DNA of 26,108 nt, taken from the IMG/VR virus record IMGVR_UViG_3300047384_000194, positions 1-26,108 of that record. One strand, given 5' to 3'. A model generated the notes under the pieces. The model had not been told where the DNA came from. It did no database searches and worked only from the letters and a program-made list of their open reading frames with translations. A program made the translations under genes and the position numbers. Of the stretch, positions 3,515 through 24,800 are shown one piece after another; within the stretch, counting starts at the first letter, position 1, and every line of letters starts with the position of its first letter. The stretch is from a virus.

Positions 3515-4825
3515 TTAACTATTTATTTTTGTGCTTACCACTATTTCAGTATCATCAAATCTAGCATGTGGACCAATACCACCCTCTCTGAAAATACCTC
3601 CAATCATTCTACCTTTGAAAATACCATCTCTTCCAAAGACAAAACAATTTGTTAATTGACAACTACCATGTACATAAGAAGACTCAACTTTTGAATCCTT
3701 TACCTCACAACCTTTATAGAGTTGTGATCTTATTATCTGTGCACCATCAACAATACCACCATAAATAGCACTATTTTCGATGTTGCCTGATAGCTCGCAA
3801 TCTATAAACTCAAAGCCATCTAACAAGTATGCAGTTTTAAATTTACCACCTTTAACTTGTACCATACCGTAGTCGGAATCGTAGTTAATAATACCCTCTT
3901 CCATACCACCGTGTGCGAGTAACGCTAGAACTTTATGTTTAAATCTGTTCCATTGTACTTCGATTACTTGCTCGTTGTCTGTTAAGTCCACTAATATATT
4001 TATCTTCTTCCAATATTTATTTACTGCTTTGTAATCTTTTAGCATTTCCATTAGAGGTTTATTCTTCTCTAAGATACGCTTAAGTTCGATTTTATTCTCA
4101 GGAGTAAATTTAGGATTAAAACAAGATTTAAAGACAGACATGATAAATCCATCTGCAAGATGTAGAATATCATCTGTTCTTTTCTCATAATCCTTACCAC
4201 CTAAATATCTAAACTCTAAATAGTTCTTCTGTGCCTTTTCAAAGTTAATACCATAATATTTAGTATTAGCAAAAGTAAAGTTATCTGAACTAATTAGATT
4301 TTCGTTATAGTAAAAAGCTTCATGTTTAGGCATAATCCATTTAATAGACTTTGCATAAGTAGAATCTTCTCTATTTGGGAAATACTTGTATACTCTAGCC
4401 TCATCAAACTCTAGAATAAATTTCAACACAGACATGTGTTGAACCATATTTTTATCTACTAAATAATCAGGGTTAAATGACATATTAAGGTGGATTGAAG
4501 CTCGGTCATTTGTATAACCATTCTTTTCAATCCATCTTAACATTTTTTGAATTACAATTCTAGCATTTCTATAAGGCATAGGACCCGTTACGAGTTCAAT
4601 TAAGCCTTTACCACCTGACATATCAGGTTCCATCTTAAAGACATCAGCGCTTGGTTGGAAATCAGAATGTGCTTTATCTTCTAACTTAATCTTTCTATTT
4701 ACTAACTCAGATATAGATTTTTGTGTTTCCTCTAATTCTAGATTAGAATAAAACTCAAACTCAATTCCAATCTGGCTAGCGTTTAGAATAGATTGCCTAT
4801 CCGAAGATACGTTTAGTTTTTGCAT
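3515..4825 (-). CDS. Amidoligase-like (glutamine-synthetase fold) protein with C-terminal beta-helix
   Basis: A 436-residue, apparently two-part protein. The first 300 residues show motifs spaced as in COOH-NH2 ligases of the glutamine synthetase/glutamate-cysteine ligase fold: IGIEFEF (19-25, metal-binding Glu pair), EPDMSGGKGLIELVTGP (66-82), SIHLNMSF (110-117) and YLEFRYLGG (202-210). Such enzymes use ATP to form amide bonds between a carboxylate and an amine. From about 322 onward the sequence becomes short hydrophobic/Gly/Cys repeats (FIDCELSGNIENSAIYGG, SSYVHGSCQLTNCFVFG), the look of a left-handed beta-helix or pentapeptide-like solenoid. It lies between the S1-like gene and the neck/gp25/gp6 genes, so it is probably expressed with virion genes. 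The substrate is unknown; peptide tagging of a phage or host protein, or a cell-wall-related reaction, are guesses. Fold call fairly sure, activity not shown. Confidence 0.65.
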   Translation of the reverse strand: MQKLNVSSDRQSILNASQIGIEFEFYSNLELEETQKSISELVNRKIKLEDKAHSDFQPSADVFKMEPDMSGGKGLIELVTGPMPYRNARIVIQKMLRWIEKNGYTNDRASIHLNMSFNPDYLVDKNMVQHMSVLKFILEFDEARVYKYFPNREDSTYAKSIKWIMPKHEAFYYNENLISSDNFTFANTKYYGINFEKAQKNYLEFRYLGGKDYEKRTDDILHLADGFIMSVFKSCFNPKFTPENKIELKRILEKNKPLMEMLKDYKAVNKYWKKINILVDLTDNEQVIEVQWNRFKHKVLALLAHGGMEEGIINYDSDYGMVQVKGGKFKTAYLLDGFEFIDCELSGNIENSAIYGGIVDGAQIIRSQLYKGCEVKDSKVESSYVHGSCQLTNCFVFGRDGIFKGRMIGGIFREGGIGPHARFDDTEIVVSTKINS

Positions 4826-4879: not shown

Positions 4880-6160
4880 TTAGGGTAATTTTAAAAATAC
4901 CTTCATAGACGATTCATCAATTCTAGTAATTTGTACATCTAAAGAATCACCTATCATATATTCTTCAAGTTTATTATCTGGAAGCTCGCTTACATGTAAT
5001 AAACCAGTTACGCCCTCTTCAATATTTACAAATATGCCATAATCCTTTTTAGTCTTTACTTTTGCAGCAACAATAGAAGGTATTTGGTATCTTGATGAAA
5101 TATTAATCCATGGATTAACAGCAGTCCCCTCTTTTTGAGTTAAGGTAATTTTGTTATTACTAATAATATCTTTTACAAAGAAGTTAATTGGCTCTCCTGG
5201 TTTAATATCTCTATTCTTAAATCTAACTAAAGTATCTTCATTTAATTCATTATTATGAATCATTCCAGTTAAACATTTATCAAACTCAACAAAGACCCCA
5301 TATTTTGCAGTTCCTGTTACGTTACCTTCTTTAGGTTCTTGTATATTTTCTTTTAAGTTATTAATAGCCTGTGGAATTAAAGCTTGTAAATATTTTCTAT
5401 GTGATACTACAATTGTACCTCTATCTGGAGAGAAACTAACTGGTACTACATAAATTTCTTCACCGACAATAGAACTAAAGTCAGATAGTTTATTAATACC
5501 TGCAAGTGAACCTGGCATAAAGCAATCTATACCTTGTACTCTTACAATATAACCACCATTCTCAATCATATTTTTAACCTTACCGATCCAGGCAGTATTA
5601 CCCTCTTCGATACCAGCTCTTAGGTCCATGAAAGTTTTATGTTTCACTCCACCTGTAATAGATCCAGTTAATGTACCCTTTGTTTCTGTAATTAAGACCG
5701 CTGTCTCTTCACCAGGCAACATCATTCTAACTTCTTCAGATTCTTTTGAAGCCTTTACATATACAGACTCTCTATATCCTATATCAACAGTAATCCATTC
5801 TTGGTCTACTGCATAGATATTACCTGTATGGATTTCTCCAATATTTAAACTTGGTTTAATTTCAGGGCTATTTTCAACTAAAATATCATATAGCTCTTGT
5901 GCATAAGGTTCTCTTGAATATACCTTATCACCATGTCTAGTCTTAATATGTGGATTTGGTTTTCTGGTTTTAGTAACACACGTAGCTTCGTATGCGTCCC
6001 ATAAGAACTCGCCGCTCTCATCGTAGAACTGTGCGTGGGGATCTTGAGTTTCCTCTTTTACTTCTTTAATTTCTTCTGTGGGTCTTTGAATAGTTTCAAC
6101 TAATTCAACTGTGTTTGCTTCTTGGGTTGCAGAAATTCTGCGTCTTTTTTTATCTGACAT
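4880..6160 (-). CDS. Ribosomal protein S1-like RNA-binding protein, four S1 domains
   Basis: A 426-residue protein built of four OB-fold S1 repeats at roughly residues 106-168, 187-256, 277-345 and 360-425. The last two are clearest: GNVTGTAKYGVFVEFDKCLTG with IHNNEL, and AAKVKTKKDYGIFVNIEEG with LHVSEL, matching the S1 pattern G.V....yGiFV......GL.H.SEL. The first 45 residues are charged and probably disordered (DKKRRRIS, then Glu-rich). Cellular bS1 usually has four to six such repeats and brings mRNA to the 30S subunit, which matters for messages with weak Shine-Dalgarno sequences. Most genes in this window lack one, so a role in steering host ribosomes to phage mRNA is an attractive inference. 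An alternative is RNA stabilisation or packaging into virions. It has its own upstream promoter-like element. Confidence 0.85.
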   Translation of the reverse strand: MSDKKRRRISATQEANTVELVETIQRPTEEIKEVKEETQDPHAQFYDESGEFLWDAYEATCVTKTRKPNPHIKTRHGDKVYSREPYAQELYDILVENSPEIKPSLNIGEIHTGNIYAVDQEWITVDIGYRESVYVKASKESEEVRMMLPGEETAVLITETKGTLTGSITGGVKHKTFMDLRAGIEEGNTAWIGKVKNMIENGGYIVRVQGIDCFMPGSLAGINKLSDFSSIVGEEIYVVPVSFSPDRGTIVVSHRKYLQALIPQAINNLKENIQEPKEGNVTGTAKYGVFVEFDKCLTGMIHNNELNEDTLVRFKNRDIKPGEPINFFVKDIISNNKITLTQKEGTAVNPWINISSRYQIPSIVAAKVKTKKDYGIFVNIEEGVTGLLHVSELPDNKLEEYMIGDSLDVQITRIDESSMKVFLKLP

Positions 6161-6182: not shown

Positions 6183-6198
6183 CATATTATATATCTAC
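6183..6198 (-). promoter_or_regulatory. Putative phage promoter element before the S1-like gene
   Basis: On the minus strand the sequence is GTAGATATATAATATG, containing the GATATATAAT element seen elsewhere in the window. It ends about 25 bases upstream of the ATG at 6160. The TAG stop codon of the upstream HExxH gene lies inside the element, so a coding end and a promoter share bases. Confidence 0.5.
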
Positions 6199-6563
6199 TT
6201 AAGTACGCGTTTTATCCATGCGTAATGTTTTCTACCACTTAGGTAGCTTAAGTTATCATCATTATCGTAAGCCTCTCTTTCAAACGAGATGTTATAGTAG
6301 GCTTTTTTACCATAAAAGAATAGTTTAATAAACCACTCAGTTACATACCAAATATAAAATGGTATAATTAGCATCTCTTCTTGTTGTTTAATATGAATAG
6401 TCTCGTGGTTAATTATCCTAGCCGCCTTTCTTCTCCACGGTGGAGTCGAATTGTAAATCTCTCTTAAGATAACATACGGCCAAAGGGTAATACCGCCGAT
6501 CCTCATAAATAGACCTATGCGGTCTAAAAATTTATCATTATATTTAATAATAGGTGTTTTCAT
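6195..6563 (-). CDS. Small HExxH zinc-metallopeptidase-like protein with hydrophobic segments
   Basis: A 122-residue protein with a zinc-binding HETIH motif at residues 53-57, inside INHETIHIKQQEEM. A downstream FEREAYDND stretch (94-102) provides a Glu in the place of the third ligand of gluzincin-type peptidases. Between them is a strongly hydrophobic, aromatic segment (about 64-84, LIIPFYIWYVTEWFIKLFFY) and there is another around 17-34, so it may be membrane-associated. Short proteins with HExxHxxQ and ErEAy motifs occur in Bacteroidetes and their phages; their substrates are not known to me. The neighbouring gene also encodes an HExxH protein, suggesting a pair acting on the same target, for example in lysis or release. 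It could also have lost catalysis. Confidence 0.65.
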   Translation of the reverse strand: MKTPIIKYNDKFLDRIGLFMRIGGITLWPYVILREIYNSTPPWRRKAARIINHETIHIKQQEEMLIIPFYIWYVTEWFIKLFFYGKKAYYNISFEREAYDNDDNLSYLSGRKHYAWIKRVLK

Positions 6564-6577
6564 ATAATTTATATATT

Positions 6578-7078
6578 CTATTTACAAATCTCAGCCCTGG
6601 GTATAAATAACTTATGTGTTAATTCTTCAGCGTGTTGTTCCCAAGGTCTATCTCCCCATGGTTGGTCCCATGTAGATATTTGACCTCTCCATGTAACTAG
6701 GCCAAATCCTTCTTTTAATAAACCCTTTTCAAATTGATAAACATGTACGAGTTCATGAAAGAATGTTCTCTCTAATCTCTCTAACGTATATCTACTATTT
6801 AATTGAATTAGATAAATGTTAGGTAATATTTCTGTAGTTAGTCCAATAATCCTAAAATCTAATGGAGCCATTTCTGTTTTAATCACCGGTGATATAAGAG
6901 GTGGATTTCGTAACAAGGAATCTCTTAAAAACTTTTTTGAACTTTCATTATTAATAACCTCTGCTATAGTAGGTCTTTTGATAATTGAAATATTAATGCG
7001 CTCGGGTTTATTATCTTCTGCAATCTGAGCTGCAAAGAGGTAAAATACTAACAGAAAGATGAATCTTTTAAGGATAAT
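6578..7078 (-). CDS. HExxH zinc-metallopeptidase-like protein, likely exported, non-ATG start
   Basis: The frame has no ATG or GTG. A TTG at 6916 would give 112 residues, but the frame stays open upstream to a TAA just before 7091 and encodes a classic signal-peptide pattern: ILKRFIFLLVFYLFAAQIAE, basic then hydrophobic then small residues. I therefore favour a rare start, ATT at 7078-7076 or the adjacent ATC, giving about 166 residues. A promoter-like element ends 18 bases before, the spacing seen at other genes here. The mature part has HELVH (residues 54-58 counted from the TTG) within RTFFHELVHVYQFEKG, and PWEQHAEELTHKL about 35 residues later supplies a third-ligand Glu. It is probably secreted to the periplasm or membrane. 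A sequencing error or frameshift at the start cannot be excluded. Confidence 0.55.
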   Translation of the reverse strand: MILKRFIFLLVFYLFAAQIAEDNKPERINISIIKRPTIAEVINNESSKKFLRDSLLRNPPLISPVIKTEMAPLDFRIIGLTTEILPNIYLIQLNSRYTLERLERTFFHELVHVYQFEKGLLKEGFGLVTWRGQISTWDQPWGDRPWEQHAEELTHKLFIPRAEICK

Positions 7079-22341: not shown

Positions 22342-22992
22342 TTATTCTTTACCTGCGCCGTATGTTTCTTTTAACTCGTCTATCTTTTTAGCATAAGCCT
22401 CTTTCATCTCATTACAGTGAGCCTCATACATTTCTTGAGTTAATTCTGTTTCTTTAACTTCACCATAACCTTCTTCCATTGCCTTTGCAGCAAGAGTCGC
22501 TACTAGAGCAGCATTCTCTTTCATATACATTTCTAATGTGTGGTCTTGGTATTCGTCATTCTCATAAGCACATGCAGCTTCTTTTACTTTTGCATAGCCT
22601 TCAACTAACATTTCTTCTACTGTTGATGGAGCTTCTGCTTCTCCTTCTGATTCAACTTCTTCAACTTCTTCTTCAGGAGCTTCTTCAGAATCTTCTTCAT
22701 CATCATCTTCATCTTCGTCGTCATCGTCGTCGTCTTCATCATCGTCATCTTCGTCAGAATCGTCGTCATCAGACTCTTCAGAATCATCAATATCGTCGTC
22801 AGAATCATCTTCTTCGTCTTCTATTTCTTCAGCAGGTAATTCAGTGCCTTCTTCACACTCTAAACAATTACCTTCTTCGTCGGTACCACATGGGCACTCT
22901 TCGTTTTCTACTTCTTCTGTAGTATCTACGTTATCTTGTCCAGCTTTTAACTGAACTTGATACTCTTCGAATGATAGGATTTTTTTAGCCAT
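22342..22992 (-). CDS. Extremely acidic protein with Cys cluster
   Basis: A 216-residue protein whose central part (about residues 50-120) is an almost unbroken run of Asp, Glu and Ser encoded by GAT/GAC/GAA codons. Before it is a cysteine cluster, CPCGTDEEGNCLEC (about 34-47), which looks like a small metal-binding knuckle, and after it a helical part (TVEEMLVEGYAKVKEAACAY, and repeats of the form EMYxxxxxE). Similar acidic proteins of T4-like phages act in the prohead core or as DNA mimics; either is possible here, and neither is proven. It heads a transcription unit with a clear promoter-like element and is followed by a gene one base later. The Asp/Glu run makes shadow frames on the other strand that should be ignored. 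Confidence 0.65.
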   Translation of the reverse strand: MAKKILSFEEYQVQLKAGQDNVDTTEEVENEECPCGTDEEGNCLECEEGTELPAEEIEDEEDDSDDDIDDSEESDDDDSDEDDDDEDDDDDDEDEDDDEEDSEEAPEEEVEEVESEGEAEAPSTVEEMLVEGYAKVKEAACAYENDEYQDHTLEMYMKENAALVATLAAKAMEEGYGEVKETELTQEMYEAHCNEMKEAYAKKIDELKETYGAGKE

Positions 22993-23030: not shown

Positions 23031-24800
23031 TTAGGTAATTTTTTCGCGTAATTCTGCGTTGTGGAATAATATACCATCAGCCATATAGACGTCTTCAGTT
23101 TCTACGTCAATTGAATATGTATTAACAGTTTCCGTAACATACTCAGTGTTGGTTACCTCTACCCACCCATTTGCAGTGTAGAATGAATCTCCAACTATAA
23201 CATCAGCTGCCTGTTTAAACGAAATATCATTACCAGCAGATTTTACTAGGATAGGGTGTTCACCAGTTACCTTTGTTAAACCGTTATTAAAGTTATGATA
23301 TGCAGTATGCTGACCTGCGATTACTCTAGTAACGGTTGCGCTACTTGAGCTAGCTGAGAATTGATTAATTTGACTTGAGTATTCTTCCCAAGTTGATTCT
23401 GTTTCATCATCGCCTAACCCTGTAATATCATAAGAGGCTAGAACGTCACCCACTTGCAGATCTTCTACTAGTTTAGTTGTACCATCAGCCAAATTCATTA
23501 CTGTACCTTCTACGTGACATGGTCCCCATGAAAAGGCGATGCTATCTACACTAGCCGAATCCAATGTAAAAGTACCATCTGTGTTAAAATCAATAGTTAA
23601 AGTCTCACCACCGTTTTCGTTACCTGAACCTTCATCAATCCAAGCAGTTACATATCCATCATTAGAGGAAGGAGAAAAAGAAACCGTGTCAATATATGAA
23701 CTAGCAGGACTGTTCGGATTTTCTACACTAAAATAGGTGTAGATTCCGTTACTATCAGTATCGGTTATATCTACATGAGCGTCGCCATTCCAATCGAAGT
23801 TAGCTGTTACGGGTCCACTACCTACCATTGGATTAGGATGCCCACTGTGATTTACCGAAGTAAATTCAAAATTAAATTGAGGTACCGGCGTTTGTGTCGT
23901 CGTTATAGATGTATTAGGAGCTGTAATTAAAACAGAACACCAGTGGCTTGTATCATCTGGATGTCTAACAATTAAATAAATTTGATTAGCCGGTAGACCT
24001 GTATTTGGACCTGCTTGTGTGCTAGCGCTCTCTTCTGTATAAGGTTGATTTCTAATAAGCCCACCACTATTAGCATTTGGATCAACGTGGTCATAAGAAA
24101 CCTGTGCCTGTCCAGTACTCGGAGAATTATTAACTGTTAAATTTTCAACCCAATATGGAGTAATACTCGACTGGTGATTAGAATCATCCGGGGTTGTAAT
24201 TGCCCAATATACATCATTATCTTTTACTAGAGTTGCATCAGGGTCTAACGCAAAAGTATATGTTGTTGCCGCGTTTGCCGATTGACTTGAATTATCATCA
24301 CTATATTCACTACCTCCTTGGCCAGAAATATGTTCATTTACAATAGTAGCATTAGTGGACGTTAATAAAATACTATTAAGTGGCGCAGCTGTAGTCGTTG
24401 TTTGCTCTAATGTTGTAGTCGTTGATTCAACTGTAGTTGTCGTTGTTTGCTCTAATGTTGTAGTCGTTGATTCAACTGTAGTTGTCGTTGTTTGCTCTAA
24501 TGTTGTAGTCGTAGTTGGCTCTAATGTTGTAGTAGAACTGACTGTACCATCCCCAGTTTGTGTAATAGTAAAACTATCTACTAATGTGTTATCATTAACA
24601 TAGTTCCAATGTCTTACTTCCCATTGAGATGTTCTAGTCGCACCAGTATTATCTGCAATTGTAAAGTCTGATGTACCTGTAGTTTCTGTATCAGATCTTG
24701 TGATCCATGATACACCATCCACATTAACCCATGTAAAATTTGGATTTGATGTAGTATTATTTCCTGTATAAGTAACAGATCTTTGAATTATTGAAGGCAT
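23031..24800 (-). CDS. Tail/surface protein: BACON-like domain, Thr-repeat linker, C-terminal Hint (intein-like) domain
   Basis: A 589-residue modular protein. Residues about 20-83 look like a BACON domain (FTWVNVDGVSWITRSDTE near the start, SFTITQTGDG at the end). Residues about 88-138 are a mucin-like Thr-rich linker with a 15-residue repeat (TTTTVESTTTTLEQT). Next come beta-rich, Asn/Ser-rich parts, and a Hint domain at about 428-581: nucleophile-position Cys428 (CHVEGTVMNLADG), VGDVLASYD, the TGEHP block at 512-516, YSIDVETEDVYMADG and a terminal His-Asn (580-581) followed by only eight residues. Hint domains self-cleave or splice their own backbone; here it could release or attach the tail after N-S acyl shift. 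With BACON it suggests a fibre or adhesin maturing by autoprocessing. Likely virion; no signal peptide. Confidence 0.75.
   Translation of the reverse strand: MPSIIQRSVTYTGNNTTSNPNFTWVNVDGVSWITRSDTETTGTSDFTIADNTGATRTSQWEVRHWNYVNDNTLVDSFTITQTGDGTVSSTTTLEPTTTTTLEQTTTTTVESTTTTLEQTTTTTVESTTTTLEQTTTTAAPLNSILLTSTNATIVNEHISGQGGSEYSDDNSSQSANAATTYTFALDPDATLVKDNDVYWAITTPDDSNHQSSITPYWVENLTVNNSPSTGQAQVSYDHVDPNANSGGLIRNQPYTEESASTQAGPNTGLPANQIYLIVRHPDDTSHWCSVLITAPNTSITTTQTPVPQFNFEFTSVNHSGHPNPMVGSGPVTANFDWNGDAHVDITDTDSNGIYTYFSVENPNSPASSYIDTVSFSPSSNDGYVTAWIDEGSGNENGGETLTIDFNTDGTFTLDSASVDSIAFSWGPCHVEGTVMNLADGTTKLVEDLQVGDVLASYDITGLGDDETESTWEEYSSQINQFSASSSSATVTRVIAGQHTAYHNFNNGLTKVTGEHPILVKSAGNDISFKQAADVIVGDSFYTANGWVEVTNTEYVTETVNTYSIDVETEDVYMADGILFHNAELREKIT
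23058..23519 (-). other. Hint/bacterial-intein-like domain
   Basis: The 154-residue segment runs from Cys428 to His580-Asn581 of the surrounding protein. Splicing blocks are present in order (Cys start, L.VGD.V, TGEHP with the TxxH pattern, DVYMADGILFHN). No homing endonuclease is inserted. Residue +1 is Ala rather than Cys, Ser or Thr, so full protein splicing is unlikely; N- or C-terminal cleavage is more likely, as in bacterial intein-like domains. Confidence 0.7.
24394..24512 (-). repeat. 45-base tandem repeat coding a Thr-rich linker
   Basis: Two identical 45-base copies (24421-24465 and 24466-24510), preceded by 27 bases of a further copy, encode the repeated TTTTVESTTTTLEQT linker of the Hint protein. 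Perfect identity implies recent duplication and probable length variation between phages. Confidence 0.85.

What the first reader, a model, noticed from the sequence alone, without database searches (positions are those of the whole stretch)
23031..24800. Tail protein ending in a Hint domain with Ala at the +1 position
The Hint blocks look intact (Cys428, TGEHP, HN end) but the protein ends eight residues after the terminal Asn with Ala at +1, so classical splicing is unlikely and self-cleavage or attachment is expected. Combined with a BACON-like domain and a Thr-rich stalk, it may be a fibre or adhesin that self-processes during assembly or adsorption.
Basis: partly seen in the sequence, partly recalled or inferred. 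Interest (0 to 1): 0.68.

Follow-up and report, generated by a model that had tools for sequence, protein, structure and literature searches.

The report
Phage fibre ending in intein-like domain
A tail-fibre-like gene of a marine phage ends in a self-processing protein domain related to bacterial intein-like domains, and the same ending, with its catalytic residues kept and almost nothing after it, recurs on dozens of unrelated phage fibres, which suggests that many phages use it as a self-acting fibre-maturation module.

Summary
Window 23031-24800(-) encodes 589 aa with a Hint domain at 428-581 (Cys428, T512GEHP, H580-N581), Ala582 at +1 and an 8-residue end. It is not chance: an AF2 model (pLDDT 91) superposes on the Tetrahymena BIL2 domain (Z 19.2, rmsd 1.9), and profile searches rank bacterial intein-like (BIL) domains above inteins and Hedgehog. 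It meets every sequence criterion tested for an A-type BIL domain. It belongs to a family seen here as 60 non-redundant domains at the C-termini of fibre-like phage proteins. Cys1 is kept in 57/60, the terminal His-Asn in 59/60, while +1 varies freely and only a median of 7 residues follow. Bacterial Hints fetched with the same patterns are followed by a median of 125. At the window's own locus, related phages carry Hint (7 of 13), an S74 chaperone-like end (1) or neither (5). Best explanation: a swappable self-processing C-terminal fibre module, working like S74 but with Hint chemistry. Cleavage is inferred, not shown. Splicing is not excluded: A-type BILs without a +1 nucleophile can splice by aminolysis. 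Unexplained: the short tail holds a Lys in 29/31 clusters.

The parts
23031..24800 (-). Gene of the 589-aa fibre-like protein with C-terminal Hint domain
   Evidence: same gene position in syntenic phage contigs
24546..24800 (-). Residues 1-85, BACON-like N-terminal domain shared with neighbouring fibre genes of related phages
   Evidence: alignment A5; Pfam BACON in 8/15 members, best 7e-8; window sequence itself below threshold
24381..24539 (-). Residues 88-140, Thr-rich stalk (TTTTTLEQTTTTTVEST repeats)
   Evidence: translation; 45-bp tandem repeat 24394-24512, 2.6 copies, 100% matches
23520..24380 (-). Residues 141-427, predicted beta-rich region before the Hint; part shared only with Hint-bearing relatives
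   Evidence: 43% identity over 354 aa to L032, which includes the Hint; AF2 not confident here
23058..23519 (-). Residues 428-581, A-type BIL-like Hint domain
23517..23519 (-). Cys428, predicted N-S acyl-shift nucleophile (Cys1)
   Evidence: Cys in 57/60 non-redundant relatives
23253..23267 (-). Block B T512-G-E-H-P516 (TxxH)
   Evidence: Thr 92%, His 92% of 60 relatives
23058..23063 (-). Block G His580-Asn581
   Evidence: His 60/60, Asn 59/60
23034..23057 (-). Post-Asn tail AELREKIT, +1 Ala; short Lys-bearing tail typical of the family

Best explanation
[quoted passage not shown] Inferred chemistry: Cys428 makes a thioester with the preceding residue; the thioester is hydrolysed or aminolysed, separating the fibre from the Hint. 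Asn581 cyclises and frees the short tail; the two steps together may join fibre and tail. Inferred role: a swappable C-terminal self-processing module of the fibre that acts during folding or assembly and is then shed, working like the S74 intramolecular chaperone end but by Hint chemistry. Shown: domain, fold, catalytic residues, family-wide placement, module swapping, purifying selection. Inferred: cleavage, timing, role.
For: Invariant Cys1/His/Asn across 56 Cys1-bearing relatives at 22-63% identity (four nr members were left out, three without Cys1); TxxH kept in 92%. Fold matches BIL2 Z 19.2, CthBIL4 (2lwy) Z 17.5; the profile ranks BILs first (2.7e-15), inteins 5e-10, Hedgehog 0.1. dN/dS 0.05-0.38 over related pairs. 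+1 is V, K, A, I, T, G, R and others, one Ser, no Cys, so trans-esterification is not selected. Domains are C-terminal with 2-24 residues after Asn, median 7; bacterial Hints retrieved with the same patterns have a median of 125. Different fibre-type N-termini carry the same end: collagen, BACON, gp10-C/fn3. At the syntenic slot: Hint in 7/13, S74-like in 1 (PF13884 E 9e-4, just under cut-off), neither in 5. A-type BILs with HN and no +1 nucleophile cleave and partly splice (PMC4031507, PMC7664689).
Against: No experiment and no virion proteomics found. In the window the residue before Cys428 is Pro (Gly in 32/57, Pro in 4/57), which from intein practice (own knowledge) can slow N-terminal cleavage. 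In L017, L018, L021 and L032 the Hint already sits on a separate small ORF, so cleavage cannot be needed to free the main fibre there. Stand-alone paralogues in NCTB and L003 have lost Cys1 and block-B His yet keep His-Asn. Five of 13 syntenic phages have neither module. The S74 replacement rests on one locus.
Confidence: 0.5

Rival explanations
1. Covalent attachment: the Cys428 thioester is resolved by an amine (the freed tail, the tail Lys, another virion protein or a host-surface amine), so the fibre ends up ligated and not just cut.
For: A-type BIL ligation by aminolysis is known (PMC4031507). The short tail holds a Lys in 29/31 sequence clusters, against a mean of 13.2 and a maximum of 24 in 10,000 length-matched draws of other C-termini.
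Against: No acceptor identified; the Lys position varies (+1 to +11); Lys may only be a solubility or charge feature. The clusters are not fully independent.
Confidence: 0.2
2. Retained structural tip: the Hint fold is kept as a compact C-terminal cap or oligomerisation head, with little or no catalysis in the virion.
For: Stand-alone paralogues without Cys1 and block-B His persist; some members (L072, L075, L008) have Gln for the block-B His; split-ORF versions exist.
Against: A purely structural cap would not need Cys1 in 57/60 and His-Asn in 59/60 at about 30% identity.
Confidence: 0.22
3. A decayed intein that inserted near the end of a fibre gene and lost its endonuclease.
For: Hint fold, mini-intein size, no endonuclease insert.
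Against: No uninterrupted homologue with the tail joined to the fibre was found among syntenic relatives; the same end occurs on unrelated N-termini; selection keeps the catalytic residues while +1 drifts. Internal Hints in the same contig set do have Ser or Thr at +1 (L092, L074, L075).
Confidence: 0.05
4. Release of a C-terminal toxin or effector, as in polymorphic-toxin Hints.
For: PT-HINT and Intein_splicing Pfam models match many members.
Against: Nothing follows the Hint except 2-24 residues, unlike the bacterial Hints.
Confidence: 0.01

Closest known systems
[quoted passage not shown] thermocellum BIL4, PDB 2lwy; T. thermophila BUBL BIL2, 6y75/6tmm)
   Same: Hint fold, Cys1, TxxH, terminal His-Asn, no +1 nucleophile; best sequence and fold matches
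   Different: Sits at the very end of phage fibre proteins with almost no C-terminal flank; the known ones lie inside secreted bacterial proteins or precede other domains; activity here untested
phrog_38766 / alexandravirus-type 'virion structural protein' (Erwinia, Dickeya, Yersinia jumbo phages; Phage NCTB intein-domain proteins)
   Same: Collagen-like tail protein with C-terminal Hint and HN plus a ~10-residue tail; 48/56 domains match the PHROG
   Different: About 30% identity in the Hint only; N-terminal parts unrelated; often Thr at +1
Peptidase_S74 intramolecular chaperone ends of phage fibres
   Same: Same place (C-terminal end of fibre-type proteins); occupies the equivalent slot in L022; self-removing (PMC7824862)
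   Different: Unrelated fold and chemistry (Ser/Lys against Cys/Asn)
Pretoxin Hint (PT-HINT), BIL-bearing adhesins and MafB toxins
   Same: Hint domain on surface or secreted proteins (PMC4287609)
   Different: There a variable C-terminal domain follows; here none
Inteins (class 1)
   Same: Fold and blocks A, B, F, G
   Different: No +1 nucleophile, no real C-extein, no endonuclease

Membership tests
A-type BIL domain | Hint fold | tested here: met
   AF2 pLDDT 91.3, Z 19.2 / rmsd 1.9 to BIL2
A-type BIL domain | N-terminal nucleophile Cys1 and block B TxxH | tested here: met
   Cys428, T512GEHP; family 57/60 and 92%
A-type BIL domain | C-terminal His-Asn | tested here: met
   His580-Asn581; family 59/60
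A-type BIL domain | No conserved Cys/Ser/Thr at +1 | tested here: met
   Ala582; family +1 V14 K11 T10 A8 I5 G3 R3 L2 and single N, S, P, M
A-type BIL domain | Autocatalytic cleavage or splicing | not testable with these tools
   needs expression and mass spectrometry
Class 1 intein | Nucleophile at +1 and flanking exteins of a conserved host protein | tested here: not met
   Ala +1, 8-aa tail, variable host protein
Type B BIL | Lacks the intein-like C-terminal His-Asn block | tested here: not met
   His-Asn present
Hedgehog Hog domain | No C-terminal His-Asn; sterol-recognition region after the Hint | tested here: not met
   His-Asn present, only 8 residues follow; weak profile match E 0.1
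PT-HINT pretoxin | Toxin domain after the Hint | tested here: not met
   stop eight residues after Asn581
Peptidase_S74 fibre end | S74 sequence and fold | tested here: not met
   Hint fold and no S74 match in P0001; S74 found only at the equivalent slot in L022
Tail-fibre-type protein | Virion location | not testable with these tools
   inferred from gene position next to baseplate and fibre genes and from PHROG labels

The most novel reading that the evidence does not exclude
The C-terminal Hint makes a reactive thioester at the fibre end that is resolved by an amine, such as the conserved tail Lys or an amine on a partner or host surface, so that phages covalently cap, crosslink or anchor their fibres by Hint chemistry.
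Probability: 0.1. Interest if true: 0.88.

Novelty: new variant of a known kind. Interest (0 to 1): 0.52.

Why it matters
S74-type self-removing ends are a known way for phage fibres to fold and mature. A second, chemically unrelated self-processing end that is widespread on marine and jumbo phage fibres would explain the many 'intein domain' tail annotations, would give Hint domains without a downstream partner a role, and could supply small splicing or ligation domains that accept any +1 residue. It is directly testable on cultured Erwinia or Yersinia phages.

Tried and rejected
Vint family search in the window record: none. Single-sequence viral scan with the window Hint found no relatives; alignments were needed. 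Full-length AF2 with 13 sequences gave a usable model for the Hint only (mean pLDDT 49.6), so the BACON-like and middle regions have no model. Literature searches for Hint or BIL ends on phage fibres and for virion proteomics of Hint-bearing phages found no study of them; phiCbK and CBB discuss inteins in terminase and other enzymes, not fibres. Toxin release and live-intein readings rejected, see rivals. One apparent 171-residue tail (L081) comes from a paralogue ending in His-Asp and was left out of tail statistics.

Full report
Observation. The ORF at 23031-24800 on the minus strand translates to 589 aa exactly as described: BACON-like start, Thr-rich stalk, beta-rich middle, and a terminal Hint domain with Cys428, T512GEHP, His580-Asn581, Ala582 and an eight-residue end AELREKIT. 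The record is a 26-kb virus fragment with baseplate genes (Baseplate_J/gp6-like, gp25-like, gpV-like), so it most likely comes from a contractile-tailed phage.

Is it a real Hint? The single sequence is weak in Pfam but matches phrog_38766, a jumbo-phage virion structural protein, over its Hint end (8e-11). A profile of 56 relatives hits BIL domains of the PDB first (2lwy 2.7e-15; 6y75/6tmm 3-4e-15), then inteins (best mini-intein 5e-10; one larger 'intein C-terminal splicing' protein at 6e-11), with Hedgehog only at 0.1. An AF2 model from 47 sequences has pLDDT 91.3 and pTM 0.86. It superposes on T. thermophila BIL2 (Z 19.2, rmsd 1.9, 140 residues) and C. thermocellum BIL4 (Z 17.5); on the Mtu RecA intein the aligned span runs from residue 1 to residue 440, that is model Cys6 (Cys428) to model Asn159 (Asn581). 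Rows within about 1 Z are tied, so the fold alone does not separate BIL from intein; the sequence profile and the +1 residue do.

The family. Relatives were found in cultured phages (NCTB; Erwinia, Dickeya and Yersinia jumbo phages; Alcaligenes and Salmonella phages), where Y3's record already says 'putative phage tail protein, contains intein domain'. They were also found in 79 viral loci by patterns internal to the Hint, which do not bias the position of the domain or what follows it. In 60 non-redundant domains, Cys1 is kept in 57, block-B His in 92%, terminal His in 60 and Asn in 59. In the 56-row alignment of Cys1-bearing members the only invariant columns are Cys1, His and Asn (four members were left out of it, three of them without Cys1). 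dN/dS between related pairs is 0.05-0.38. +1 is V, K, T, A, I, G, R and others, with one Ser and no Cys. The domain ends the protein: 2-24 residues follow, median 7. Hints fetched from bacterial genomes with the same patterns are followed by a median of 125 residues (33 ORFs). N-termini differ: collagen, BACON, gp10-C plus fn3, poly-Gly stalks. Within the contig set, Hints lying inside other proteins (L092 8779-9720, L074, L075) have Ser or Thr at +1, as real inteins do.

The locus. Phages with helicases 83-94% identical to the window's share the slot just upstream of an acidic 'MAKKILSFEEY' protein. Of 13 with a fibre cluster there, 7 end in a Hint (fused in L026, L037, L039; on a small separate ORF in L017, L018, L021, L032; L017 and L018 carry the same sequence), 1 ends in an S74-like domain (L022 7363-8100, PF13884 E 9e-4, just under cut-off), and 5 have neither. 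The L022 contig carries its Hint protein elsewhere (L064). The end of the fibre is therefore an exchangeable module, with Hint and S74 as alternatives at one slot.

Mechanism. Established for A-type BILs: thioester at Cys1, Asn cyclisation, mostly cleavage, some splicing by attack of the freed amine (PMC4031507; PMC7664689). The family keeps exactly the residues for these two steps and drops the one for trans-esterification. I infer N-terminal and/or C-terminal self-cleavage, and read the role as a maturation end of fibres comparable to S74. Against it: Pro at -1 in the window; stand-alone paralogues without Cys1 that keep His-Asn; split ORFs; S74 exchange seen once. A finding without explanation is the Lys in the tail: 29 of 31 clusters against 13.2 expected from length-matched C-termini of other proteins. 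It may mark an acceptor amine or merely charge.

Known or new. The domain kind is known (A-type BIL). Individual phage genes are already annotated as containing an intein or Hint domain, and the cultured homologues form phrog_38766. I found no paper that describes the arrangement: catalytic residues kept, +1 free, nothing downstream, swapped with S74, on many fibre types. The library is open-access only, so absence is weak. I rate it a new variant of a known kind.

Noticed in passing
L022 7363-8100 compared with window 23031-24800: Peptidase_S74-like end (PF13884 E 9e-4) at the locus where relatives carry the Hint; the same contig has a Hint protein elsewhere (L064).
   Followed up: partly
L017 7410-8147, L021 4803-5507, L032 612-1661: The Hint is on its own small ORF that starts with what looks like the second half of a BACON domain (RTAYLxIxHP..LTITQ); in L021 the preceding fibre ORF stops within the equivalent of the same domain.
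   Followed up: partly
L003 4480-4941 and L001 744-1205: Stand-alone ~153-aa Hint proteins next to collagen-like fibre genes that lack Cys1 and block-B His but keep HN at the end; possible trans-acting or structural paralogues.
   Followed up: no
L095 and L105: Two Hint domains in tandem separated by four residues (HN-IPPF-C).
   Followed up: no
tails of the family, e.g. window 23034-23057: A Lys in 29/31 post-Asn tails, far above the length-matched background.
   Followed up: partly
window 22342-22992: Very acidic Asp/Glu-rich protein with a conserved C-terminal region, present next to the fibre cluster in all close relatives; related forms occur in more distant contigs without a fibre cluster beside them.
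   Followed up: no
window 3515-4825: Amidoligase_2-like protein (PF12224, E 4e-7) among baseplate genes; possible peptide ligase in a phage tail region.
   Followed up: no
window 6195-6563 and 6578-6916: Two adjacent small proteins with HExxH motifs (HETIH, HELVH), no Pfam match; possible metallopeptidase pair.
   Followed up: no
window 4880-6160: Protein with S1 RNA-binding domain repeats (PF00575, E 3e-27) in a phage structural region, resembling ribosomal protein S1.
   Followed up: no
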